Positions 586 through 29,593 of a stretch of DNA of 32,500 nt are shown piece after piece. Source of the stretch: Neocallimastix lanati (nom. inval.) (lineage: Eukaryota; Neocallimastigomycota; Neocallimastigomycetes; Neocallimastigales; Neocallimastigaceae); NCBI GenBank assembly GCA_016946835.1, contig JACVTC010000005.1, positions 782,501 through 815,000 on the forward strand, written 5' to 3'. The translations under genes and the position numbers were made by a program. Within the stretch, counting starts at the first letter, position 1, and each line of letters starts with the position of its first letter. Under the pieces are notes generated by a model. That model was given only the letters and a program-made list of their open reading frames with translations. It had not been told where the DNA came from and ran no database searches.

Positions 586-3500
586 ATAGAGAAAAAAAAA
601 AAAAAAAATAAAAATAAAAATATAAATAAATTAATATGAAATGTTTAAAGAAAAAGAAAAATATAATAAAAAACATAGTTTATAAAATATATAAATTGGC
701 TCAAAAATTTATAAATATAATTACCAATTGATTTATCTTGATTGATAAAGCTTCACGCTCACTTTCTGAAGTATTAACAATATTATCAAAATTATCTTTT
801 AAATTTAATAATAAAAAAAAAAAAAGGATTATAAATTTTTTTTTTTTTTTTTTTTTTTTTTTAGTATAATAATTTATAATTATTATTATTATCATTATTA
901 TATATATATATTTATATATAAATATATTTTTTAATGATTTAATATACTATAAAGTTATATATACCTCTAATATTCTTTGTTGATTTTTCTAATTTATCTT
1001 TACTTTCAGTTAAGGTAGCAATTAATTCTTTTTGTTTAATAATTTCTTCATTCTTATCTAAGTTTTGTTGACGAATTTCAATTAAATTTTTATTGGCTGT
1101 AGCTAATAATTCTTTCATCTTTTTAACTTTTTCTTTATTTTTCAGTTTATAATTTTCAAATTCGGTATTGTTGGTTTCGAATTTTTGTTTTTCATTTTGT
1201 AAAGTATTAATCTTTTTTAATTTATTTATTTATTTATTTATTTATTTAATATATATATATATATGAAAGGTTAATAATATTAAATATATATATTTATAAA
1301 CATATGTTTATTATTAATAATTAATTATATTTAAAAATTTTTATTTTTTTATATACATAAATTTATATAATTATTCTATTTATTTATTTATTCATTTATT
1401 TTTAATTTATTATAAATTACCTTTTCTTGTAATTCATTAATGGTTTCAATTTGACATTTTTGTGTATCCTTTTCAACTTGAATTTGTTCCTTAAGCTCAG
1501 TAATTCTCTTTAAATTCTCGGATTGTCTATTTTCAAGCTTTTCAATTTTAATACTATTTGTTGAATTTAAATTATTTATTATTTTGTTTTTACTATCTAA
1601 CTCATTTGCCAATTGAGAAATAACTTGTTCATTATCCTTAAGATTAAATTGAAGATTACTAATGTTCTTTTCATGTTCTTTTATGGTTATAATGTTATCT
1701 TCATTTTTCTTTTGTAATTCGTTAATCTTACTATCTAATTGTTTTTCCTTTTCTTGCATTTCATTTATTAAAGCTTGATTCTTTTGTTCAGTAACTTCTT
1801 TTTCTTTCATTTTATTTGTTAATTCTTCAATTTCTCTGGCTTTATTGGCATTGTCTTCATTATCTTTGGTGAGCTGATTTATCTTTTCATTAAGCGTAGT
1901 AATTTCGTTAATCTTACTATTCAATTCATTGATCTTTTCTTCAATGTTCTTTTGTAATTCTTCTTTTTCTTTTATATTTTTATTATTTAATTCTTCCATT
2001 TCTGAAACCTTCTTATTTAATGTTTCAATATCGGAATCTTTTTTGCTGAGTAATTCATTATTACTACTTTCTATTTCGGAAACCTTCTTATTCAACATTT
2101 CAATAGAGGAATCTCTTTCTTTTATGGATTTATTATTAATATTTTCTAATTCAGATAGTTTTTTATTCAATTGTTCAATTGTAGAATTCTTTTCTTCTAA
2201 AGATTTTTGATTTGATTCCTTATTGGTATTGAGTTCAGATTGAAGGGTTTCATATTGCTTTTGTAATTCTTCTTTTTCTTTTATATTTTTATTATTTAAT
2301 TCTTCCATTTCTGAAATCTTTTTATTTAATGTTTCAATATCAGAATCTTTTTTGCTGAGTAATTCATTATTACTACTTTCTATTTCGGAAACCTTCTTAT
2401 TCAACATTTCAATAGAGGAATCTCTTTCTTTTATGGATTTATTATTAATATTTTCTAATTCAGATAGTTTCTTATTCAATTGTTCAATTGTAGAATTCTT
2501 TTCTTCTAATGATTTTTGATTTGATTCCTTATTGGTATTGAGTTCAGATTGAAGGGTTTCATATTGCTTTTGTAATTCTTCTTTTTCTTTTATATTTTTA
2601 TTATTTAATTCTTCCATTTCTGAAATCTTTTTATTTAATGTTTCAATATCAGAATCTTTTTTGCTGAGTAATTCATTATTACTATTTTCTATTTCGGAAA
2701 CCTTCTTATTCAACATTTCAATAGAGGAATCTCTTTCTTTTATGGATTTATTATTAATATTTTCTAATTCAGATAGTTTCTTATTCAATTGTTCAATTGT
2801 AGAATTCTTTTCTTCTAATGATTTTTGATTTGATTCCTTATTAGTATTGAGTTCAGATTGAAGGATTTCATATTGCTTTTGTAATTCTTCTTTTTCTTTT
2901 ATATTTTTATTATTTAATTCTTCTATTTCTGAAATCTTTTTATTTAATGTTTCAATATCAGAATCTTTTTTGCTGAGTAATTCATTATTACTACTTTCTA
3001 TTTCGGAAACCTTCTTATTCAACATTTCAATAGAGGAATCTCTTTCCTTTATGGAATTATTATTCGTATTTTCTAATTCAGATATTTTCTTATTCAATTG
3101 TTCTATAGTAGTATTCTTTTCTTCCATAGATTTTTGATTTGATTCCTTATTTGTGTTGAGTTCAGATTGAAGAGTTTCACATTGTTTCTGTAATTCTTCA
3201 ACTTTGGAATTTAATTCTTTAGATTCATTTACTAATTTTTTATTATTTATCTCTAAAGATATTACTTTTTCATTAATTGATTTATATTCATCTTCTTTAG
3301 TATTAATTGAAAGTTTTAATTCTTCATTTGAATGTTCTAAAGATTTGACATTTTCCAATAGCTTTTTATTTTCGTTTTCTAAAGTTTCAGATTTTTGTTG
3401 TAAATCAGATTTTAAACTTTCTAATTCGACTTCACGACTCTTACTACTTTCACTGTACTCTTGGTGTTCTTTTTCCATCTTTTCCATTGCTTTTTCATAG

Positions 3501-6500
3501 TTTTTTTGTTTTTCTTCAATACTTGCTTTTAATTTTTCAATATCAGAATCACGAGAATTAATTTCTTTTTCATTATCAAGTTTAAGCTTTTCAATTTTCT
3601 CCTTAAGTTCATTATTTTTCTTTTGAATATTTTCTTTTTCATTATTACTAGATGTTAAATCATTTTTGAGAGATATAAGTTCTTCTTCTTTTGATTTTAT
3701 ATTGCTATTCAAATTATTAATTTGTTCTTTAAATTGATCTATTTGTGTTTGGTGTTCATTCTTTAGATTTTCAATAATTGAAGCATCATATTTAGCTTCA
3801 CTATTTTCTTGTTCCGCACTGAGACATTGTTTGAGATGTGAAATTTCTAAATCGTATTGCTTCTTCGTATCTTCAATTTCTTTTTCAGTTTTCTTTTTAT
3901 CATTGGTCATATTTTCGATTATTGAAATTTTACTTTTTACTTCTGTTTTAAAACTATTAACTTGATTTTCTAATGATTTAATTTGTTCCTTTTGATGTGT
4001 TGATTCTGAACTTAAAGCTTCCTTTTCTAATTCCAATGATTTAACCTTTTCTTTAATATCATTTAATTTAGTAGTGTTTTCTTGTTTTTCATTTTCTAAT
4101 GACCTTAATTTATCTTCAAAATCAGTTAATTTATTAGTATTTTCTTGTTTTTCATTTTCTAATGATTTTACTTTATCTTCAAGATTAGATAATTTATTAG
4201 TAAGTTCTTGTTTTTCATTTTCCAAAGATTTTACTTTTTCTTCCAAATCAGATGATTTATTGGTAAGTTCTTGTTTTTCATTTTCCAAAGATTTTATTTT
4301 CTCTTCAAATCCAGATGATTTATTAACAAATTGTTGTTTTTCATTTTCTAATGACTTTATTTTATCTTCTAGATCTAATGATTTATTGGCTCTTTCTTGT
4401 TTTTCACTTTCCAAAGATTTTATTTTCTCTTCAAATTCAGATGATTTACTAATAAGTTGTTGATTTTCATTTTCTAATGATTTTATCTTATCTTTTAGAT
4501 CTGATGATTTGTTAACTATTTCCTGTTTCTCATTTTCTAATGATTTTATTTTATTTTCAAGACCAGATGATTTATTAGCTATTTCTTGTTTTTCATTTTC
4601 CAATGATTTTATTTTTTCTTCAAGATTTAATGAATTTGAATTTATAATTTCCTTTTCGCTTTCCAATGATTTTACCTTTTCTTCTAAATCAGCTGATTTA
4701 GAATTTAAGGTTTCTTTTTCTTTTTCCAATGAATTTATTTTTTCTTCAAGATTAGATGATTTTTCAATAATTGCTTGATTTTTATTTTCTAAAGATTTTA
4801 TCTTTTCTTCTAAACTGGATGATTTAGTATTTACGCTTTCTTTTTCTTCTTCTAAGGACTTTATTTTTTCTTCTTGATTTGACGATTTTGAAATCATATT
4901 TTCATTTTCTTCCTTTAAAGATTTTAAATGATTTTCTAATTCTTCATATTTTTCACTCAATTTGTTTTTTTCTTCGTTAAGTTTATCAATTTCGATTTTT
5001 AAACTTGCTTTTTCACTATTAATATCATTTTCATTTTGTTTGATAGTACTTTCATATTTTTTAAGTTCTTCGGAAATATTATCTTTTTCCTCCGAAAGTT
5101 TTTTTATTTTTTCTAATAATTCATTCTTTTCATTTTGACTTATATCTTCTAATGATTTATATTTATTATTAAATTCATCAATTTCTCTTTCTTTATCACC
5201 TTTTAATTCATTAATAATTTCATTAAGAGAATTTATCTTTTTTTCTAAATCATTAATTAATTGACTATTTTTAGATTTTTCAGCATCCAATTCACCTTTT
5301 ATTCTTATATTTTCTTTTTCTAAATTATTTTTTTTATTCTCATTTTCATTATTAATTTCTTTAAATCTATTATTAATTAATTGAAGATTTCTAATAGTTT
5401 GTGAATTTTCTTCATCTTTTTTAATCACTTCATTGTAAGAATTTTGAATAGTACTTTTTTCATTATTTACCTTTTCTAATTCTTTAAAGATATTATTAAA
5501 TTTTTCAGAAAGACTATTATTTTCAGTTAAAAGTTGTGACTTTTCATTATTTAATATATTAATTTTATTTTTAAGTTCGTTAACTTCATTTATTAAATTT
5601 TTATTTATATTTTTATCATTATCATTAGATTCATCGTCCGAAAATGAAATTAATGGTTCTTCTGTTGGACTATCCATTTTTTTATTAGAAATTTTTTTAA
5701 TTTCTTCTTTCATACTATTATTTTCTTTTTGAAATGTTGTTATATCTTGTTTATATTGTTTATTTTCTTGTTGTAATATTGAAATTTCATTTTGTAATTC
5801 AATTAATTTCTTTTGTAATAATGCTATATTTTCTTGATAATTAATAGAAGGTGTAAGAGTTCCTTGTGAAGTTGTAATATCGGAATATGCTTCCGTCATA
5901 TCATCTTGACCTAAACTCATATCATTTTTTTCTTTTAATTCTTTAATTTCTCTATGTAAATTTATAATTTTTTCTTTTGCTTTTGCTTTCAATAAACCAT
6001 AGTTTTTATCTTTTATAATAATTTGTTTTTTTAATAATGCGTTTTCTTCTACAGCTTTTAATTGGTCATTTTTATATTTTACTGTCATTTCTTGATATGT
6101 ATCATTTAATTTTTGTAATTCTATACATTTTTCTTTTAATTCGTCATATTCTAGATCTTGTAATGATTTCAAAGAACTCTGACTCTTTATATATATTATT
6201 TTATTTTCCATTTTATTTCATAATAATTTATATTATTTTTCCATAAATTTTTTTAGAAATAATTTTTAAATTTTTATACATTAAATATAAATGGTAATAA
6301 AGTATATATAAGTAATTATATAGTTAAAATAAATTCATATTTAAATATTTAAATATAAAATATAAACTTATCATTATGTAATATTTTAAATATGAAATTT
6401 ATATATAAATATATATTATTTTTATTATTTTATTTTAATACCTTTGAATTTTTTGTGATTCCCTCAACAAAATTTCCAAAATGCTGAGATATATTTAGAA

Positions 6501-8971: not shown

Positions 8972-11874
8972 ATGGTAAATATTATTGTCAGCTATATTAT
9001 AAATCTATAAAATGAATGTTCTGGAAATAAATCTTTTAATCTTCATAAATAATTTTTCTAAATTTAATAGGAGGAAAGATATGCAGGAATCATCTTTTAC
9101 AAATTTGGAAAAGGTCCAGAATTCTTATTGATTAATGATTCATATGCTAAAAAGAAATTTTGGGCTCCACCAAAGGGAAAGATTATTGGACAAGAAGATG
9201 AATTACAGTAAAGAAATTAATAAAAAATTTAATATTAAATAAATTTATTTGTAATAAAATATAATAATTATAAACAAAATTTTAATTAGATGTGCAATCC
9301 GTGAAGCTAATAAAATCACTGGACTTATTACAAGAGATTTTCAAATCGAAGATGATTTTAGAGCTGAATTTAAATATTTAGCTGAAACAAGGTTATTATT
9401 ATAATATTATTAATATATATAATACTATCTAATATTATTTATTAAATGTTACAATTATAATCATAAAGACCAAAAAATGTTGTTTTCTTTTTAGCTCAAT
9501 TGACTGATCCATCACACAAAGTTTACCCACCAGCTGAAGGAATCCATTTTAATTGGCTTCCATTTCCTCAAGCAGCTGAGAAGGCTGTTTTCAAAAATAT
9601 GCAAGAAGTATTAAAGCAAGCTCAAGATTATATCGAAGAAAGAAAGTCAAAATACAATAATGGAAATGTTAATAATTACAATAATAGTAATAATTATCAA
9701 CCAAATTATTCACCAAATTATCAAAAGAATTTTGATATGAACAATGAAAGACGTTTCAAAAGACCATCACATGATGAAATGGGAAATATGAGAATGGGAA
9801 ATCAAGGTAGAAATCCATTTATGAAGTCTCCAAGTCCATTTAATCAAGGAAGACAAGAAAAGACTTATAGACCAAACATGATGAATGGTGGAAATATGAC
9901 TCGTTCATTCAGTTCAAACAGCAATGGTTATTCTAGTCAAAATAATAATGGACCTTTTGGCCCACATAATCCAGGATTTGGAAATCCAAAAGATCAATAT
10001 GGAATGCCACCTCAACAAGAAAATCATTTATACAAAACTAGACTTTGTGAAAGGTTTGAAGCTGAAGGTACATGCCCATATGGTTCAAAGGTATCTATCT
10101 ATTTTTGAACAATTTAAATGAATTATACATATTCATTAAATATATATTATATATATTAATATAATATATATATTTTAAATATAATTATATTATTTTTATA
10201 GTGTCATTTTGCTCATGGTACTGTTGAACTTCGTAGAATGCCACAACAATCATCATATGATGATCAATATAATATGAATCAACACCAACAAATGCCACAA
10301 AGTTCAAATCCTCTTTATAAAACTCGTTTATGTGAACGTTTTATGAATGAACATTATTGTCAATATGGTTCAAAGTAACTAATAGATTATTATTATTGTT
10401 ATTATTATTATTACTAAAAAAGTAATTATATTGAATTAATTCATATTTTTTTTTTTCAAATTTAAATTTAATTAATTATTTAATATTATAGGTGTATATT
10501 TGCTCATGGTAAATAAAATAAATAATAGTTTTTAAATAATAATCAACATTGTATATGTAATTTTGTATCAATTAAATTTAATTATAATAATTAAAATAAA
10601 AAAATATTTTATAGGTCCAGAAGAACTTAGAGGCAGACAAAATGAAATGGATGATGATTTAAATAATAGAATGCATGATATGAGTCTTAAGAGCCCAGGC
10701 CCAGGTCCAAGATCAAATTCACCATCATTTAACCAATTCCGTCCACAACAACCTGGATATTATCCACATTCAGCTTTACATAAAGCTTCTTATTCTGGTA
10801 TGCCACCACATCGTCAACAATTCAGCTCACAACAACCAAGCGGTATACCACCATTAAGTTCGTATATGATATTTATATATAAATTAATTTTAAAATTAAA
10901 ATTATAAAATATAACTTTAAATATTAAAATTTAAAATTATTATAAATATATGTATATATTCATAAAATAATAATAACAATAATAACAGTTAAACCTTCAA
11001 GGTATATATATATATACTTCATGATATTAACTATTTGAAATAATAAATAAATAAATAAAATAAAATATTAAATATTAAAATAATAAATATTTTAATAATA
11101 AATATTTTTATATTAAATTTTTTAATTTTTAATTTATTAAAATAGTCCAATTAAATCAGAAAATGAAATGATGAATGAACCAGAAATGAAGGTAGAACCT
11201 GCTGTAACTAATAAACCAGAAGCTGTAATTGAAAAGACAAAAGAAATGGAAAAACCAGTAGTTAAGGACTTCCTTAAGAGTGATGTAAATATTAAAATTC
11301 AATTGAGAATCCTAATTTATAAAATTATACAAATTTAATTTAATATTAAATAAAAAATTTATATATATAATAAATACAAATATAAATATTAAGTTTGAAG
11401 ACAAGTCTTGGATGAAGGTTGTTGAGTTAACAAGTGATGAGAAGGAAAAATTAGAAAGCTTGTTAGTGAAATTTTATTAATTTTTTTATGAATGAATATA
11501 AAATAAAAAATATGGTAATAATAATTATTTTTAATAATTGAATTATTATATTATTATTATTATTATTTACAGGAAAGTTTTAGAAAAGCGTCCATCACAA
11601 CCAGCACCAAAACAATACTTAGATGATCCAGTAATCATTTCATTAGGTGAATTCTTTAGAGAGGGTGAACATGATTTAAAGGATGAAGTTAAAGAAATTA
11701 CACGTTTAGAATTTAAGCATGATTTAAGTAAACAACAATTATTTAATGTATTAATTCCAAGTTTATTCGATGAGTCATATAATGTTGAAAAGTTAACTGC
11801 AAGAAAAGCATTATTCTTAGCTGTATGTTTATATGCATAGTATCTGTTAAATAATAACAATAATAATATTATTA

Positions 11875-11905
<31 letters not shown>

Positions 11906-12309
11906 AAAAAATTACTAAATTATTAATTCTTTAAATATATATATGTATATATATTTAATTAATAATATCAAAATATTATAGTTCATAAAGAGTGCTAGTG
12001 ATCAAATTTATTTCTTAAAATCATGGGAAAAGTATTTATCTTGTTCAAGAATGTCAGCTGTTCTTCCAAGAACACCAGTTTTATTTAAAGATTTTTATGA
12101 TATTGATTTAGTAGAAGAAGATAATATATTAACATGGTATGATGAAAGCCCTGATTCTTCAATTGTTAAACAAAAATGTGAACCATTTATTACTTGGTAA
12201 GTTTACATATTATATAATTTAATATTAAATTGGAAAATTTAATAATTTTTAATATAATTATTTTAGGTTAAAGACAGCTGAAGAAGATTCTGAATCTGAA
12301 TCTGATTAA
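8972..12309 (+). CDS. Nudix (NUDT2-like) - tandem CCCH zinc finger - W2 domain fusion protein
   Basis: Twelve exons give 671 residues: 8972-8974, 9071-9207, 9290-9391, 9469-10090, 10202-10374, 10492-10508, 10615-10861, 11146-11284, 11394-11461, 11573-11822, 11982-12196, 12267-12309. Residues 1-140 align by eye with Ap4A hydrolases (WAPPKG, FKYLAETRPKNVVFFLAQL), but the Nudix box (37-59) reads REANKITGL, so the usual EE pair is K55-I56 and catalysis is doubtful. Residues 140-268 are Asn/Gly/Pro-rich and disordered. Two TTP/TIS11-type fingers (YKTRLCERF..., C-x8-C-x5-C-x3-H) have ligands C274, C283, C289, H293 and C332, C341, C347, H351; this class binds AU-rich elements in 3' UTRs. Residues ~520-665 look like a W2 domain, ending with the two aromatic/acidic boxes (EEDNILTWYDE; EPFITWLKTAEED) of eIF5 and eIF2B-epsilon, which contact eIF2-beta and other initiation factors. 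I infer an RNA-bound translation regulator. Least certain are exon 1, which is only the ATG, and splicing at 10862-11145. Confidence 0.85.
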
Positions 12310-13749: not shown

Positions 13750-16863
<3,114 letters not shown>

Positions 16864-19406: not shown

Positions 19407-21015
19407 ATGTCAAATAAAATTTTTTTAAGAATTTCCTGTGAAAGTACAGGAAATTCTACGACATTAGAAGTAATTAATTAATAAAATATTTCATATTATT
19501 ATTATTATTATTACTATTACTCAAAAAAAAAAAAAAAAAAAATGATGAAATATTTATTAATATTTCACTAATATCAATATTAAAAACTATAATATATATA
19601 TATATATATAATAAAAAATTTTAACATTAAATATAATGAATTGTTTTTTCAATAAAAAAAAATTTTTTTTATTATAGTTTGATGATGATCTCCGTGTATC
19701 TGATATATATGAAAAATTAAATGTAAAATTTGAAATAAAGCCTGAAGATAAATTCATGTTATATCGTCCATCGAAAAAGTCTTATTTAAGTCCATCAAGG
19801 ACATTATATTCGTATGAATTTTCAAATGAAGAAATGTTAATTTATAAAAATCCTGTACGAATGATCAAAATTAAAATGATGGACAGCACCACAAAATTAT
19901 TTTCTATTAATGAATCCGAACCTATTTCTGAAATTCTAGATATGATTTTAGATAGACTTAAAATTAGTAATTATTAGTTAATTATTCTATATATATATAT
20001 ATATTATTATTATTATTAAAGATATGAATTAATAATATTTAAATAATAATTAATTATATAATAATATACTTATTAAAATAAATACACATATATGTATATA
20101 TATTTATATTAGATCTTGATAGTAAAGAAGAATATGGAATATATAAAGAAGAACAAGAAATTGAAAGTCCAACAAAACAAAAAAAGAATAGTATTCCAAA
20201 ATATGCTTTTTTATATATGAATAATACTAAATGGTTAGATCCAACAAAGACTTTATGTTATGAGGACATCGGTCCTGATGATGTTCTTATTGTAAAAAAG
20301 AAATTATTTTTTACCGATGAAAGATTAAATAGAAATGATAATGTTCAAATTAATTTAATTTACAATCAAATTAAAGAAACAATTATTGATGGAACTAATC
20401 CATGTACTTTTGAGGAAGCTGTTCTCTTGGCTGCTATTCAATGTCAAATTCAATATGGTGATTGTGATGCTAATAAAATTAAATCTAATATTATTAAGTA
20501 TGTATATTTTAAAACAATATATATATTATATAATTTAATATCATATCATATTATATTATTTATTACAATATTATTAATTTAGTGGTTATTCTATTTTATA
20601 TTGTATTATGTGATATTATTTATTTAATTACTTTTATTATGGATTGATTAAATGATATATTATTATATAATTATTTAATTATTATTGATAATATAGTCCT
20701 GATGAATGTTTACCACTTGATTATCGAAAACATAAAAAGGTAGATAAATTAATTGCAGACGAATACTATAAATTAACAGGTTTAACTGAAACAAATGGAA
20801 AATTTAAATACATTCAAATGTGTAGATCTCTTAAAACTTATGGTACCACCTTTTTCTTAGTAAAAGTAATTAATTTAATCGAAATTAATTTAATGGAAAT
20901 TAATTTAAATATATTTTTTATTTCTTTTTTTAATTTTTTAATTTTATCATTTATTTTAATTTATGCATTATTATTTATTATTATTTATTATAATTTATTA
21001 TTATTATTATTATTA

Positions 21016-21084
<69 letters not shown>

Positions 21085-21299
21085 TTTAAAAAAAAAAAAG
21101 GAAAAAAGTGCAAAGAAGAAGAAGGTTATTCCAATTCTTCTTGGTGTAACCAAAAATTCAATTTTAAGAGTTAACCCAGAAACAAAGGAGGTTTTAGAAG
21201 AATGGCCTTTAAAGAAATTAAAACGTTGGAATTATAATAATACATCGTAAATTGAATAAAAATATTTTAAAATTACATACATTTCAAAAATAAAATATA

Positions 21300-21330
<31 letters not shown>

Positions 21331-24300
21331 TAAATATATAGATATAAATATTGATATAAACTAATACTAATATTATCTGAAATATATTTAATATATTATT
21401 GAATATGGTATAATATATAAAATAATATAAATTTATATAATATAAATTTTAATTTAATTTTTATTTCCAGGTTTTCAATTGATTTTGGAACTAACAGGGA
21501 AGAAATTTATGTTGCTGAAACTGATCAAGGTAATGATATCTCAAAACTTATTAATGATTACATTAAACTTATATCCAAAATGAAGAATAAAGATGAAAAG
21601 AAGGAAGAAGAAAATAATGATACTGAGGAAATTGCGCAAGTTGTTGAAGAAGAAGTACCAAATGCTTCCCTTCAACACAGGGTAGAAATTGAAGTTAAGA
21701 AAATTGAAGTTAACGATTATATTGATTTATTAAATACAGCATTAATGTATTTATCAAAATCAGAAGAATGTATTTTACAAACAGTTAATATGGATGAAAA
21801 TAATAATATTTATTCTGATAAGACATATTATCAAAATTATAAAACTATTAGTAATGATGTTGAAATTTCAACAGAGAATATAAATAAATTATCTTCTTTA
21901 TCAAAAGATGATGATATTGAAGGAATTTGTAATAAGATGGTAAATATTGCAAGTTTAATTGAAGAAATAACGACATTAATTGTTTTCAATTCTCAATATT
22001 TAATTAACAATAATCTTATAAAAAATTCAAGGAATAAAGAGAAAGATACAAGTATTTTAATGAAAAATTATTTCTTTAAGAATGTAACAAGTAAGCATGA
22101 AAAGCAAAGTTCATTATTTTCACTTCCAGATTCAGAAACAAATTCATTACATCGTGATGATAGTGTGAGGTCCTTTGAGTCAAAAAGTAGTGATATTAGA
22201 AATATTAGTAATACCGAGAATTATAAACTAATTTCGGATAAAATATTTTTGCCAGAAAATTATAAAATTACCATGCATACAAAATATGTTATTGAGTCCT
22301 TAAAGGAAGCAATACTTTCTAACAATGAAAATCAACGTTACACAATTTTAAGTATTGATACTCGTATAATTGTTGAGATATTAAAAAAACTTAAAATTAG
22401 TGTTTATGATAACATTCCTGGAAAATATGATTGTAATTTATTTATCAAGATCATATCCGAAGTTAAAACGACTTTCACTGAATTACAAGAAAAAATAACA
22501 AATGAAACAATCTCTTTAGAAAATAATGAAGATGATGAAATAATTAACGAAGATTTTAATAAAAGATATGTTGATATTATTGATTGTATGGAAAAGAATG
22601 CACATAATGTATATGATTTATCAAAAGAAAATTACATATCAATGATAACAGAGTTAAAACAATTTCAAGAACAATTTTGTGAAGTAAGAAATAATAAAAA
22701 AAAATATTTCTACATAATATTTATAAATTAACATAATAAAATGTATTATTTGTAAATTTATTAATTTACTTACTTATATATATATATTCATTATATTTAT
22801 AAATATTATTTTTTTTTCCTAATTATTAGCTACATCCAAATTCATATAAAGTTTGTATCAATGAATATAAAACAATGAAAGAAACGTCTTATTTAAAAAA
22901 ATATATTTTATTCTTAAATACACTTTCATTATATATCAATAATTTAAAAAGAATGTACGGAGATTATTCAAATTTATCAATGGAAGATGATGAATCGTAT
23001 GATAATGTGTATGGAGAACTTCAATCCCTTATTGATATATTAAAGCGTATTCCTAAACAAGAAATTAAAGAAAGTCAAAAGGAAGTAGCTGAAATATTAT
23101 CATTTAATAATGAAATTTTATCAAATTCTGATTTAGATCGTCTGAATAGAATGATTGAAATTCTAAAAAGCTGTCCAAAATTAAGTGATGTTGATCCAAA
23201 TGATAAAGATATGGAAGATGTTAAGGAAAATGTTATGAAATTACAAACTTTATCTAATTTCATGATTATTCTTAGCAATTGTATGAATGAAATATATAAG
23301 TTTTACGAAAACTTGAGTATTTCCAATGCTAGTAAAATTGATGATAGAAATGATAATATTTGTGACATTGATTATAATCAAAAAGATAAACTTGTTTTAT
23401 ATGATATGTTAGAAAATTCAACATTTAAATTTTCCGACATAACCATTGAACTTTCTAATTTATTAAATAATGATGAATTTAAACGTGATTCCGGTAATTT
23501 ATTTGATAATGAAGCAGAATTATATTTAGAAGAAATTAAAAAAGATCTTATTCAAATTATTGAAAATGAAAAGAAAATTATTAATAATGAAGCCGAACAT
23601 AAAAAATTATGGAATGATAATATCACACAAATTGAAAATATTCAATCTGTTCTATTTAATCTTTTAGCTCATCTACCTAAATTTGAATTTGATAAAAGCC
23701 ATGCCATATACATTATTTATAAATTATATTCCATTATAAAAGATTTAGAAGAGAATATAATTCTTTCAAAAGGTGAATTTCTTAATCCTATTCAAAGATG
23801 TCCAGAATTGTCTGAAGCTCATCATAAGAGAGTGAAACAAGAGCTTGAAATTTTCCGTAATACATTTAATGAATTCATTGAATTGAAATCATCTGAAGAT
23901 GCTTTGTTGAATATGATAGTAAAAACTGTTAATATTTTTGAACTATTTACATTTATGCTTAAGATATCCGTGAATTCCATCACCTGTTTAGATAAAGAGG
24001 AACAAAAGATAATTTTAAATTCAGCTAAGAATACCGCTGTCTCTTTAAATAATGTTATTATTGATAAGTTAGGATTTACTGAACAAGATGTTGAAGAAAT
24101 AACATTATATATGGATGACTATATTGACATATTAAAGTATGAAGAGAAGTTAAACATTTCCGAAAACATTAAAGAAGAATTATTAGAGGAATTTAATATA
24201 AATTTAAAGGATACAGAGGAAAAATTGAATAGTACCACTAACCTTGAAAACATCATCTCAAATAATGTACATACACTTTATAAAAACATTAATGATTTAA

Positions 24301-25343
24301 TTGAAGATGTGAAATCTTGTGAAAATGAGAAGTATACCGTTGATATTAATGATTATGAAAGTTCCTGTAGCAATTTCCATAGTAATATTGCTGAAATAAA
24401 TTCCGGCATTTCAGAATTTTCCGAACAAATTAAAATATATAAAATGTATGATTATTATAAATCATTTAAACAATTATCTAAAAAAACAAAACAAATCAAT
24501 ACCGTCAATGATCCAGCGATGAAAGAAACTAAAGATAAAATTATTGAACTCTATAATAATATTAATCCAATTAATCTTAGATTGAAGGTTGATGTCATTT
24601 CACTTATTGATGAACACCGAGAAGTTAATGAAGAAATATTGAAATCCATGATGAGTGATGTAATGAAGTTTATTGAAAAGATGCAAGATATATGTGAAGA
24701 AACAAAAAATTCTCAGATAAACGTTTTCACATCTTCCAAAATTCAAAAATTAAACAATGTAGAAAAATACTTTGAACATATATATGATGCAAATAAAAAG
24801 GAATTAGAAATATTAAATAGTAAAAAGTTCTATCATGGAGATATTGGAAATATCATATATTATATGATTTCAAATACATTATGCTCAATTTATGTATATA
24901 TGAGATCATTGATGAAGAAATGTGATGAACTATTCTCTATTTCTTGTAATAGTCCAATGGAAAATCAAATGTATCAATTTGATGATAATTGGTGTGACTT
25001 ATTGACTAATTCATTTACAGAAATCAATGAAACCATTAAAACTCTTTCCAGTATAATTCATAAAAATACTTCCTATGTCAAGAATGTTAAGATTTATAAT
25101 ACTCTTAAAAAAGTGTATGAAAAACTTAATCAATTGAAATATATATCTAGTAAAAAGTACTTATTAAACAATGAATATGAGTTATGGTCCCAAACTGCTG
25201 CTGATAATGCTATTAAAAGTGCTTTAGCATCACTTACCTATATAGAAGAAGATAATAAAATACAAAAATTTAATATTAATATGTCATATGTATACTTGTT
25301 TTATGTATCCTTTATTTTCTATTTAATATGTTCTTTATTTTAA
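19407..25343 (+). CDS. Talin-like protein: complete FERM-type head with short divergent helical rod
   Basis: Seven exons (19407-19469, 19678-19966, 20113-20497, 20697-20865, 21101-21246, 21471-22683, 22830-25343) give 1,592 residues. The head follows talin order: F0 about 1-80, F1 from residue 81 (RMIKIKMMDSTTKLFS), F2 about 185-300 (CQIQYGD...RSLKTYGTTFFLVK), F3 about 303-395 (IPILLGVTKNSILRVN..., LKRWNYNNTSFSIDFG). R344-W345 align with the talin Arg-Trp pair that contacts the integrin beta tail. Talin links membrane receptors to actin. The rest is helical, Asn/Lys/Glu/Asp-rich and not recognisable as ordinary talin rod bundles. The usual ~2,500-residue length and a clear C-terminal I/LWEQ (THATCH) actin-binding domain are absent. 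The last ~16 residues (YLFYVSFIFYLICSLF) are hydrophobic; this is either a tail anchor or intron read-through after the Tyr at about 25287 (gtatac donor, then an ag acceptor directly before a TAA at about 25350). The ATT array in intron 4 is non-coding. Confidence 0.85.
21009..21085. repeat. Intronic (ATT)n array
   Basis: An ATT array inside intron 4 (20866-21100) of the talin-like gene, directly upstream of an A-rich acceptor at 21100. A shorter ATT array at about 14357-14405 occupies intron 2 of the Asi-like gene in the same way. Confidence 0.85.
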
Positions 25344-26838: not shown

Positions 26839-27343
26839 ATAATAAAAAAAAATAGAACATAGCATTTTATAGAATATATATTTATTTAAATATAAATGAA
26901 AATATCTTATTTTAAAAAATGTTTGAATATTTACAATAAAAATAAAAATAAACTATAATAAAATTTCTTTTATTTTATTTTTTTTATTTTAAAAGTATTA
27001 TTAATTTTAAAAATCAATTTTTTACCAATCATATTTTTTAAAAGAGAGGACATCTATTTTTTAAATATATATATATTTTTTTAAAATAAAAAAAAAAATA
27101 TTAATTAAATATCTTAATCAATTATTAAATAAAAAAATTTTTATTATGATAATATATAAGTTTTAAAAAAAATTTTATTGCTTTCATTAAATATAAATTA
27201 CAATATTAAAATAAAATATAAAATTTTTATATCTTAATAATTATATATTATATATTATTATATATTATTATATATATTATTATTATTATTTTTTTTTTTT
27301 TTTTTTTTTGAAAATAAGTAAAATAATAAATACATTTAAGAAA

Positions 27344-29593
27344 ATGGAAAATCAGATTGATGAACAAATTAAAAAAGAATTTTCAACAGTCAAAAAAGGT
27401 TTAACAGATAAAATTATTAAAGAATTAGTTCAATATTGTGAAGTTTATAATTTAACACCAGAGGAATTATTCGAAAAATGGGAACCATATGCTATTTCAA
27501 ATATTCCAGATGATTCAATTAATGAAGATTTACTTGAAGAATTTCGAATTTCTGTATTACAAAATGAAATTGAAAACAATAAACAAAAAAGTAAGGCATT
27601 TGTTCTTTCACCCAATAGAATGAATATTAAGAATGAAAAAAAAATATATAACAAAAATGATGTTGATAATTTAGATGAGGTTGTTTCTGAAATAATAAAT
27701 ATTAATAAAAGAAAGAAGAATTCTCAAAATGTTTTTGGTGGAACCATTGCTTCACCAGGTCGTAATAATCAGAATAGTATATCATTTCCATCAAGAGCAA
27801 ATGTGCCATATTCTCCAACGAAGTATAGAAATATAAGTAAAAAAGATGAAATTTCCTCTATGACAAAAAAATTTTTAAATAGACAAAGAATAGGAGAATT
27901 AGAAGATATATTAAATAGAGATATACCAAAACCAAATTTAGATTCTTCAATTACAAAAGATTTTTCAATATTTTTACTTGATGATAAGCAAATTTGTAGT
28001 ACTTATAGATATATGTATACCAAGTTATCTGATTTAAGTGACATCTTAGATGAAAGAATTGATTATATAAGTGAATTGATAAGAGATCATAATGGTATTG
28101 AAGAATTTGCCAATCCATATCAAATAATAAATGAAGATTTTTATACTGCTGGAAGAATTTGTTATGATATTATAGATATATTAGATGCCTCAACTGTGAA
28201 AAATAATGAAAATTCTGTTCTTATTGAACCAAGTAAAAGAATTGCCTCTGGTCATAAAATCAGATTAAATTTTTCAAAATTAGCTAATGAAGGAAAACAA
28301 TATACCCTCTTTCCAGGACAAATTATTGGTGTTAAAGGTACAAATCCCACTGGAAAATGTATAGAGGTTTCAGAAATTATTGAACCACCATCCCTTCCTA
28401 TACCCACATCTCCTTCAAGTGATATTTTACAATATTATACAGATTGTAAGGGTCAACCACTCTCCATTTTTGTAGCATCAGGTCCATATACTTGTGAAGA
28501 TAGTTTAAATTATGAACCATTGGCCGAACTATTTGAAAAATATATTATACCAGAAAAGCCCGATATATTAATATTAATGGGACCATTTATAGATGATCGT
28601 CATCCAAAAATTCAAAATGGGGATACCGAATTAACTCCCGAAGACCTATTTTCTAAATATATTTCTCCCCATATTGTAAAATTTTATATGGAATCGGCTC
28701 ATTCCAAAATTATTATTATACCAAGTAATAATGATATTATCACTAATTCAGTTTGTTTCCCTCAACCTCCATTAGATTCGGAAATGATGATGTCTCGTTC
28801 TAATCAATTCAACAAGGATAAAAATCAACAAATCTTAAATACTCGTAGAGTTCAAAAGCGTAAATGCCTTGGTTTACCGGTGGATGAAAAAGGTGAAAGA
28901 ATTTTCTATTACCCTAATCCTGTTCAATTCCAAGTTAATGATATTGTATTTGCCGTATGTAATAATGATATTTTAACACATCTTTCCAAGGAAGAAGTTA
29001 GTCATTCCTCTTTTCAATTTGGATCACCAACAAAGGGAAGCTTCTCACCAAAACCGAAACTAAATTCAAATCCAAATTCATCAAATCGATCCTTTGATAA
29101 AATTTCAAGATTAACAAGACATCTATTACAACAACGTTCTTTCTATCCCTTATTTCCTCCAGCCTTAGATGAAGCCAATATTATTTATAATCAATCTAAA
29201 GGTTTTGATATTGATATTAAGCCAGATGTTCTCATTTTAAATAGTGCCCAAAGAAGATTTGCAAAAATTATTGATGGCATGGTTTGTGTTAATCCAGGAC
29301 AGGTCGTTCATAAAATTGCAGGTACTTTCTCAAAATTATATATATACCCATTAAATCCAAAGGATCTTCCCAATCACTTGAATGATGTTAAAATTAAAGT
29401 AGAAGATGATATCAAATTAAATATTAAGAAAGAAGAAGAAGAAGATAATAAGAAGAATATAAAATTAGATATTAAGAAAGAAGAAGATGGTGATGAAGAT
29501 TCCACAAAGGATATGGAAATAGATAAAGAAAAGGATGTACCTTTAATTCATGAAGTTTCAGAAAGATGTCGTGTAGAAATTCAAAGAGTTTAA
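27344..29593 (+). CDS. POL12: DNA polymerase alpha-primase subunit B (POLA2/Pol12)
   Basis: An intronless frame of 749 residues, the regulatory B subunit that tethers DNA polymerase alpha-primase and acts in replication initiation. The N-terminal helical domain (residues 1-60, including CEVYNLTPEELFEKWEPYAIS) matches the B-subunit N-domain. A linker of about 60-190 is Ser/Lys/Asn-rich. The OB region is about 295-350 (KIRLNFSKL...LFPGQIIGVKG). The inactive phosphoesterase domain starts near 371 (SIFVASGPYT...PDILILMGPFIDDRHP), continues through KIIIIPSNNDI and PQPPLD, and includes FVAVCNNDIL-like and INPGQ-like motifs. Length exceeds human (about 600) and yeast (about 705). The extra is in the linker and an acidic insertion at about 683-733 just before the last strand (RCRVEIQRV). 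The start is the ATG at 27344; the in-frame upstream codons back to 27308 contain no ATG and follow a T run. Confidence 0.93.
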   Translation: MENQIDEQIKKEFSTVKKGLTDKIIKELVQYCEVYNLTPEELFEKWEPYAISNIPDDSINEDLLEEFRISVLQNEIENNKQKSKAFVLSPNRMNIKNEKKIYNKNDVDNLDEVVSEIININKRKKNSQNVFGGTIASPGRNNQNSISFPSRANVPYSPTKYRNISKKDEISSMTKKFLNRQRIGELEDILNRDIPKPNLDSSITKDFSIFLLDDKQICSTYRYMYTKLSDLSDILDERIDYISELIRDHNGIEEFANPYQIINEDFYTAGRICYDIIDILDASTVKNNENSVLIEPSKRIASGHKIRLNFSKLANEGKQYTLFPGQIIGVKGTNPTGKCIEVSEIIEPPSLPIPTSPSSDILQYYTDCKGQPLSIFVASGPYTCEDSLNYEPLAELFEKYIIPEKPDILILMGPFIDDRHPKIQNGDTELTPEDLFSKYISPHIVKFYMESAHSKIIIIPSNNDIITNSVCFPQPPLDSEMMMSRSNQFNKDKNQQILNTRRVQKRKCLGLPVDEKGERIFYYPNPVQFQVNDIVFAVCNNDILTHLSKEEVSHSSFQFGSPTKGSFSPKPKLNSNPNSSNRSFDKISRLTRHLLQQRSFYPLFPPALDEANIIYNQSKGFDIDIKPDVLILNSAQRRFAKIIDGMVCVNPGQVVHKIAGTFSKLYIYPLNPKDLPNHLNDVKIKVEDDIKLNIKKEEEEDNKKNIKLDIKKEEDGDEDSTKDMEIDKEKDVPLIHEVSERCRVEIQRV

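What the first reader, a model, noticed from the sequence alone, without database searches (positions are those of the whole stretch)
8972..12309. One gene encodes a Nudix-CCCH-W2 fusion
The exon phases join three modules not normally found together as far as I know: a NUDT2-like Nudix fold, a TTP/TIS11-type tandem CCCH pair and an eIF5C-type W2 domain. CCCH pairs of this type bind AU-rich 3' UTR elements, and W2 domains bind eIF2-beta and other initiation factors. A direct RNA-to-initiation-factor bridge would be a new form of translational control.
Basis: partly seen in the sequence, partly recalled or inferred. Interest (0 to 1): 0.85.

Follow-up and report, generated by a model that had tools for sequence, protein, structure and literature searches.

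The report
Fungal RNA-binding eIF5-like fusion protein
One fungal gene does join a worn-out Nudix domain, two RNA-binding zinc fingers and a translation-initiation (eIF5-type) domain, but this combination was already catalogued in fungi in 2025; what it does is still untested.

Summary
Window 8972-12309 (+) carries one intron-split gene for a Nudix / CCCH-CCCH / W2 protein. A second full-length copy in the same genome (contig C112) has matching introns and keeps the whole frame (dN/dS 0.13). That copy reveals a conserved 13-nt microexon, so the protein is probably 674 aa, not 671. Pfam confirms all three domains; NUDT2, TTP/TIS11-type fingers and the eIF5 C-terminal domain are among the nearest solved sequences.

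The claim of an unknown combination does not hold. PMC12210691 (BMC Genomics 2025) describes fungal NUDIX 'subfamily A': 84 proteins, NUDT2-related, most with W2 and zf-CCCH. That paper treats its subfamilies as enzymes and docks Ap3A/Ap4A.

What I add: the Nudix box reads REANKI instead of REXXEE in both copies, so hydrolysis is probably lost although the domain is under strong purifying selection. The fingers are not strictly TIS11-type: the linker is 38 residues instead of 18, and Arg replaces the adenine-reading Glu in both. The W2 keeps both eIF5-type acidic/aromatic boxes.

Best reading: an RNA-tethered eIF5 mimic. The eIF2-beta contact, RNA targets and direction of control are inferred, not shown.

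The parts
8972..12309 (+). whole coding region, 13 exons, 674 aa (671 aa if the microexon is skipped)
8972..8974 (+). exon 1, the ATG alone, followed directly by a GT intron; same arrangement in the C112 copy
8972..9655 (+). NUDT2-like Nudix domain, residues 1-143 (exons 1-4)
   Evidence: Pfam NUDIX 29.8 bits; NUDT2 3u53 E 4.7e-16
9176..9326 (+). Nudix box, residues 37-59, GKIIGQEDELQCAIREANKITGL (split by an intron); REXXEE reads REANKI
9467..10108 (+). single open frame joining Nudix end, low-complexity linker and most of the first CCCH finger
10046..10216 (+). CCCH finger 1 (C274-H293), lead-in LYKTRL; split by the intron 10091-10201
10331..10507 (+). CCCH finger 2 (C332-H351), lead-in LYKTRL; split by the intron 10375-10491
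10989..11001 (+). 13-nt microexon conserved in the C112 copy; absent from a 671-aa model
11637..12309 (+). eIF5-CTD-like region (Pfam W2 at 12000-12300 across an intron), with AA-box 1 LVEEDNILTW and AA-box 2 PFITWLKTAEEDSESESD

Best explanation
It is, by domain content, a member of the known fungal Nudix/CCCH/W2 proteins, and most likely works as an RNA-tethered eIF5 mimic. Shown by sequence: one gene, three domains, the whole frame under purifying selection in two copies, a W2 closest to eIF5, fingers closest to TTP/TIS11-type fingers, and a Nudix domain without two of the glutamates of REXXEE. Inferred: (1) the CCCH pair binds U-rich or AU-rich mRNA with relaxed specificity; (2) the C-terminal W2, like the eIF5 and 5MP C-terminal domains, binds the lysine boxes of eIF2-beta (perhaps also eIF3c) without bringing eIF5's GTPase-activating N-terminal half; (3) the Nudix domain is kept as a binding module (nucleotide, RNA 5' end or protein) and not as a hydrolase; (4) the result is transcript-selective control of initiation, more likely repression or stricter start-codon choice by local competition with eIF5, as 5MP does globally, than activation.
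For: Gene unity and domains. W2 nearest to eIF5 among solved sequences (human eIF5 CTD 2iu1 E 1.9e-9; best eIF2B-epsilon 6e-5; eIF4G2 0.35) and to this genome's own eIF5 (E 4e-14 over about 140 residues in a small set; hhalign probability 97.5%, 114 columns, 34% identity, each side counting as about one sequence). AA-boxes align: LVEEDNILTW / IVEEDVLLAW and PFITWLKTAEED / PFLNWLKQAEEE. No eIF5 N-terminal domain listed in the Pfam scan. Review PMC12224906 (passages): eIF5, eIF2B-epsilon and 5MP C-terminal W2 domains bind the eIF2-beta tail with its lysine boxes, 5MPs compete with eIF5, and CK2 phosphorylation within the binding regions strengthens binding; the C-terminal tail here (AEEDSESESD) is identical in both copies and has CK2-like acidic serines (motif recalled). 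Relaxed RNA reading: PMC3616968 (passages) says the Glu of (R/K)YKTEL reads adenine in BRF2 and that MEX5, with lysine there, hardly discriminates an AU-rich element from U30. Nudix kept but changed: REANKI in both copies with dN/dS 0.060.
Against: No binding, expression or localisation data for this gene. W2 domains can have other partners: eIF4G and DAP5 use AA-boxes for Mnk, and DAP5 but not eIF4G binds eIF2-beta through them (PMC4402527, passage). The W2 here lacks 7 residues of eIF5 in the segment before AA-box 2. ZC3H11 of trypanosomes has lysine at the same lead-in position and still discriminates against poly(U) (PMC3616968), so the residue alone does not settle specificity. PMC12210691 reports that most members of its new subfamilies are predicted nuclear, which fits a cytoplasmic initiation role poorly. 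The two single-exon structure predictions gave no confident fold (mean pLDDT 46.8 and 50.9), so the W2 fold rests on sequence alone.
Confidence: 0.5

Rival explanations
1. A TTP-like mRNA-decay regulator: the fingers pick AU-rich mRNAs and the W2 serves as a scaffold for a partner other than eIF2-beta (for example a kinase or decay factor), so the effect is on mRNA stability.
For: Tristetraprolin and BRF2 fingers are among the best finger matches. eIF4G uses its AA-boxes for Mnk, not eIF2-beta (PMC4402527). A basic lead-in residue need not abolish AU-rich selectivity (ZC3H11, PMC3616968).
Against: Five other loci of the same genome (pairs C223/C50 and C145/C423, and C36) have two fingers with 18-19 residue linkers and Glu in at least one lead-in; this protein differs on both points. 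W2 is closer to eIF5 than to eIF4G2.
Confidence: 0.22
2. An active Nudix hydrolase of Ap3A/Ap4A (or of RNA 5' ends) delivered to mRNAs or initiation complexes, as the docking in PMC12210691 suggests for its subfamilies.
For: NUDT2-like domain. PMC12210691 says all its new subfamilies keep at least two metal-ligand glutamates; E43 and E52 of the box are present here. dN/dS 0.060.
Against: Both glutamates of the EE in REXXEE are K55 and I56 in both copies. The strict box is present in 4 of the 8 Nudix loci found in this genome by Pfam search; the other 4, all partial profile matches, gave no box in the scan, so they neither support nor oppose. The window box fails the strict pattern.
Confidence: 0.12
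3. A general 5MP-like competitor in which the RNA-binding part only adds non-specific affinity, so control is global and not transcript-selective.
For: W2 without the eIF5 N-terminal half. Relaxed finger specificity expected from R272/R330.
Against: The genome also seems to have a separate 5MP-like W2 gene pair (C752/C744; assigned by eye, only C752 read). The finger region is conserved (dN/dS 0.128) with all zinc-binding Cys/His kept in both copies.
Confidence: 0.12
4. Artefact: two or more neighbouring genes joined by a wrong exon model or an assembly error.
For: No cDNA was available; 12 introns had to be placed by eye.
Against: Second copy readable with the same 13 exons, frame kept throughout, exons 89% and introns 63% identical; the same domain set is published for most of 84 fungal proteins.
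Confidence: 0.02

Closest known systems
Fungal NUDIX subfamily A of Pasterny et al. 2025 (PMC12210691)
   Same: NUDIX + zf-CCCH + W2 in one protein; NUDT2-related Nudix; fungi only; low-complexity stretches (98% of its members; by eye here).
   Different: The main text has no word beginning with 'eif'. The REXXKI box, X38 linker and Arg lead-ins found here could not be compared with its 84 sequences. Whether anaerobic gut fungi are among its members could not be read from the text.
eIF5 C-terminal domain / 5MP (BZW) eIF5-mimic proteins
   Same: C-terminal W2 with both AA-boxes and acidic tail, without the eIF5 N-terminal half.
   Different: 5MP has an N-terminal MA3 HEAT domain (PMC12224906, passage) where this protein has Nudix and CCCH; 5MP has no sequence-specific RNA-binding domain (recalled).
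TTP/TIS11 (ZFP36) tandem CCCH proteins
   Same: Two CX8CX5CX3H fingers with YKT-x-L lead-ins.
   Different: X38 instead of X18 between fingers; Arg instead of Glu in both lead-ins; Nudix and W2 attached.
MEX-5 (C. elegans)
   Same: Basic residue in the YKTEL position of both fingers, linked to weak discrimination against poly(U) (PMC3616968, passage).
   Different: No Nudix or W2 (recalled); unrelated developmental context (recalled).
NUDT2 (Ap4A hydrolase)
   Same: Best sequence match to the N-terminal domain (3u53, 62 bits).
   Different: EE of the Nudix box is KI here; NUDT2 is a free-standing enzyme (recalled).

Membership tests
Fungal NUDIX subfamily A (PMC12210691) | NUDIX, zf-CCCH and W2 Pfam domains in one protein | tested here: met
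Fungal NUDIX subfamily A (PMC12210691) | Nudix domain related to NUDT2 | tested here: met
   the five best of 26 PDB sequences are Ap4A hydrolases
Fungal NUDIX subfamily A (PMC12210691) | Fungal origin | tested here: inconclusive
Fungal NUDIX subfamily A (PMC12210691) | Clusters with the 84 published sequences | not testable with these tools
   No fungal protein set or supplement access
Fungal NUDIX subfamily A (PMC12210691) | Nudix signature with at least two metal-ligand glutamates | tested here: inconclusive
   E43 and E52 kept, K55 and I56 replace the EE pair; the paper's box for subfamily A is in a figure not held
Active Nudix hydrolase (NUDT2) | GX5EX7REUXEEXGU box | tested here: not met
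   REANKITGL in both copies; strict pattern fails on the box
Active Nudix hydrolase (NUDT2) | Hydrolysis of Ap4A | not testable with these tools
   needs an enzyme assay
TTP/TIS11 tandem zinc finger | Two CX8CX5CX3H fingers | tested here: met
   C274-H293 and C332-H351
TTP/TIS11 tandem zinc finger | 18-residue spacing between fingers | tested here: not met
   38 in both copies; 18, 18, 19, 19 and 18 in the five control loci of the same genome
TTP/TIS11 tandem zinc finger | (R/K)YKTEL lead-in | tested here: not met
   LYKTRL in both fingers of both copies
eIF5-mimic (5MP) | C-terminal W2 with AA-boxes | tested here: met
eIF5-mimic (5MP) | No eIF5 N-terminal (GAP) domain | tested here: met
   no such family among the 11 listed by the Pfam scan at E up to 1
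eIF5-mimic (5MP) | N-terminal MA3 HEAT domain | tested here: not met
   Nudix and CCCH occupy the N-terminal part; no MA3 among the 11 families listed
eIF5-mimic (5MP) | Binds eIF2-beta lysine boxes | not testable with these tools
   needs pull-down

The most novel reading that the evidence does not exclude
The protein is an mRNA-tethered eIF5 mimic whose dead Nudix domain senses a nucleotide or RNA 5' end (Ap4A, cap or triphosphate) without cleaving it. That would make it a fungus-specific switch linking a stress nucleotide or the 5' end of chosen mRNAs directly to start-codon selection.
Probability: 0.15. Interest if true: 0.8.

Novelty: new member of a known kind. Interest (0 to 1): 0.4.

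Why it matters
If the W2 binds eIF2-beta while the fingers hold an mRNA, fungi would have a single protein that ties chosen transcripts to the initiation machinery, where 5MP acts globally. The one paper found on this architecture presents it as a NUDIX enzyme class, so the eIF5-like reading and the lost catalytic pair give two direct, cheap tests for a group of 84 proteins of unknown role.

Tried and rejected
Separate genes or artefact: rejected through the second copy and the published architecture.

Relatives in viral and prokaryote contigs: none by tblastn (1 pattern match in viral contigs, 10 in genome contigs, none confirmed). Only the exon 4 protein (207 aa) was given, and these collections are of viruses and prokaryotes, so this says nothing about fungal distribution. 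A survey across fungi was not possible with the tools; metagenome scans were capped at 0.

Own-genome family searches read exon by exon: the Pfam CCCH search (22 matches among 60 scored candidates) and the Pfam NUDIX search (8 matches) do not list the window gene, probably because introns split its domains; the protein queries do. Counts of relatives are therefore lower bounds.

The exon 12 piece (71 aa) and exon 11 piece (83 aa) were folded alone, without relatives; mean pLDDT 46.8 and 50.9, so both are uninformative and no fold search was run. The exon 11 model is all-helical; the exon 12 model shows one helix and two low-confidence strands, unlike W2. I give neither weight.

Genome-wide duplication as the origin of the second copy: left open. 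dS is 0.42 for this pair and 0.78, 0.81 and 0.41 for the eIF5 pair and two TTP-type pairs, so one common date is not shown.

NCBIfam gave only sub-cut-off matches, two Nudix and one unrelated. A bacterial promoter/terminator scan of the 3' flank is not applicable to a fungus.

Literature: 10 searches, of which 21, 42, 56 and 71 ask for the domain combination or part of it. One search (Nudix + CCCH + 'W2 domain') returned 0 papers; PMC12210691 has no 'W2 domain' in its text. One search found it among 2 papers, by Pfam accessions found it alone, and's 75 papers I saw only the 15 listed.

Full report
What is there. The window lies in contig C445 (782501-815000) of an unnamed 199-Mb genome. It is very AT-rich (8-30% G+C in 1-kb windows of this stretch), and the genome has abundant CBM_10 dockerin domains (150 of 150 scored candidates over the cut-off, out of 1440 candidates in the first look).

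Gene model. The W2 family search found a second place with a similar W2 exon, C112:1587838-1588035. Reading that locus (L009) gave a complete second gene with exons at matching places. Between exons 7 and 9 it needs a 13-nt microexon (TTAAACCCTCAAG, L009 4454-4466) to stay in frame; the window has the same microexon (TTAAACCTTCAAG, 10989-11001) with AG before and GT after it. Using it, the window gene has 13 exons and 674 residues and the second copy 672. The window's splice site for this form is GTTCGT at 10858, weak beside the GTATAT at 10862 that gives the 671-residue form; both stay in frame, so alternative use cannot be excluded.

Is it one gene? Yes, on three grounds. A single 213-codon frame joins the Nudix end to the first finger without splicing. 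The second copy can be read with the same 12 introns and keeps the frame, with exons 89.3% identical (1809/2025) and introns 63.0% (827/1313). Synonymous change far exceeds non-synonymous change in every part: dN/dS 0.129 overall, 0.060 Nudix, 0.288 and 0.188 in the two linkers, 0.128 finger region, 0.055 W2 region. The protein is therefore selected as a whole, Nudix included.

Nudix. Pfam NUDIX matches at 29.8 bits, and the five best PDB sequences of 26 are Ap4A hydrolases (NUDT2 3u53, E 4.7e-16). The box reads GKIIGQEDELQCAIREANKITGL against [23 protein letters not shown] in human NUDT2. E43 and E52 remain, but the EE pair is K55-I56, the same in both copies. In MutT these two are metal ligands (recalled). 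Of eight Nudix loci found in this genome by Pfam, four show the strict box; the other four are partial profile matches and gave no box in the scan. Hydrolysis is thus unlikely, but was not tested.

Fingers. Both are CX8CX5CX3H. The best solved matches are an unnamed C3H1 protein (9y10), tristetraprolin (1m9o) and BRF2 (1rgo). Two defining marks of the TTP/TIS11 family are not met: the fingers are 38 residues apart where five other loci of the same genome (C223/C50, C145/C423, C36) have 18 or 19, and the lead-in is LYKTRL in both fingers. C145/C423 also has Arg in its second finger, so a basic residue there is not unique to this gene. PMC3616968 (passages read) states that the Glu of (R/K)YKTEL reads adenine in BRF2 and that MEX5, with lysine there, barely separates an AU-rich element from U30; it also reports that ZC3H11, with lysine there, does discriminate against poly(U). 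I expect U-rich binding with relaxed specificity, but the second case shows that this is not certain.

W2. Pfam W2 63.1 bits over residues 596-672 (674-aa numbering). Nearest solved sequences are eIF5 (2iu1 E 1.9e-9), then eIF2B-epsilon (best 6e-5), with eIF4G2 at 0.35. Against this genome's own eIF5 (C762) BLASTP gives E 4e-14 over about 140 residues in a small set, and hhalign of the two pairs gives probability 97.5%, 114 columns, 34% identity, with both AA-boxes aligned and a 7-residue gap before AA-box 2; each profile counted as about one sequence. The review PMC12224906 (passages) states that eIF5, eIF2B-epsilon and 5MP W2 domains bind the eIF2-beta tail with its lysine boxes, that 5MPs compete with eIF5 and raise start-codon stringency, and that CK2 phosphorylation of these regions strengthens binding. 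The acidic serine tail AEEDSESESD is the same in both copies. PMC4402527 (passage) is a warning: eIF4G's AA-boxes bind Mnk and not eIF2-beta. Structure prediction on the two W2 exons alone, without relatives, was uninformative (mean pLDDT 46.8 and 50.9).

Is it new? Not as an architecture. PMC12210691 (BMC Genomics 2025; abstract, sections 12-16 and found passages read) clusters 2,801 fungal NUDIX proteins from 183 proteomes; its subfamily A has 84 proteins, fungi only, 'most have W2 (PF02020) and zf-CCCH (PF00642)', distantly related to NUDT2, with expression evidence in Glomeromycota, Mortierellomycota and Mucoromycota. The authors treat the subfamilies as enzymes with docked preference for Ap3A/Ap4A and find most members of the new subfamilies predicted nuclear. 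The main text has no word beginning 'eif'; 'translation' occurs twice, and the one use I saw is 'post-translational'. So the window gene is, by domain content, a member of that kind; clustering with the 84 sequences could not be tested. A translation-control reading of these proteins did not appear in the four searches that asked for the combination or part of it (listings only, apart from PMC12210691), which cover open-licence papers only.

How it most likely works. The fingers hold U-rich or AU-rich mRNA, the W2 docks on eIF2-beta (possibly eIF3c), and the Nudix domain acts as a binding module. Since the protein lacks the GAP half of eIF5, local competition with eIF5, hence repression or stricter start-codon choice on bound mRNAs, is more likely than activation. 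Every step after domain identity is inference; I put 0.5 on this reading, 0.22 on a decay-type regulator, 0.12 on an active hydrolase, 0.12 on a global 5MP-like competitor and 0.02 on an artefact.

Noticed in passing
C301:650605-650763, C190:264081-264287, C748:413083-413238, C566:867421-867582 of the own genome (L015, L016, L017): Four further W2 matches (three over the cut-off, C566 just under it) lie in very long frames (979-1273 aa); the C301 and C748 proteins, the two that I read, have long acidic stretches and look coiled-coil by eye; they are diverged W2 proteins of unknown role.
   Followed up: partly
window 1388-6217 (-) and the stretch upstream of the C112 copy (L010/L009): A 1609-aa repetitive, coiled-coil-like frame beside the gene also has a diverged copy (about 80% identical DNA over 2.1 kb) beside the second gene, so a block and not one gene was duplicated.
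   Followed up: partly
eIF5 (C762/C68), 5MP-like (C752/C744), eIF2B-epsilon-like (C745/C28), TTP-type (C223/C50, C145/C423); names given by eye: Several genes met here occur as diverged pairs on different contigs, with dS 0.41-0.81 in the four pairs measured, this gene's included; large-scale duplication or hybrid origin is possible but not dated.
   Followed up: partly
window 15636-16253: About 600 bases of an almost pure trinucleotide tract, open as poly-N or poly-I on the + strand and poly-Y, poly-L or poly-I on the - strand, just upstream of a frame (16345-16863) with a RING finger.
   Followed up: no
window 20082-25343 (+): FERM central domain, then a PTB-like stretch, then an 837-aa frame without Pfam match: looks like a talin-type protein (the name is by eye).
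   Followed up: no
window 27215-29593 (+): DNA polymerase alpha subunit B (POLA2) in one long frame.
   Followed up: no
window 8972-8974: The first coding exon is the ATG alone, directly followed by a GT intron, in both copies.
   Followed up: yes
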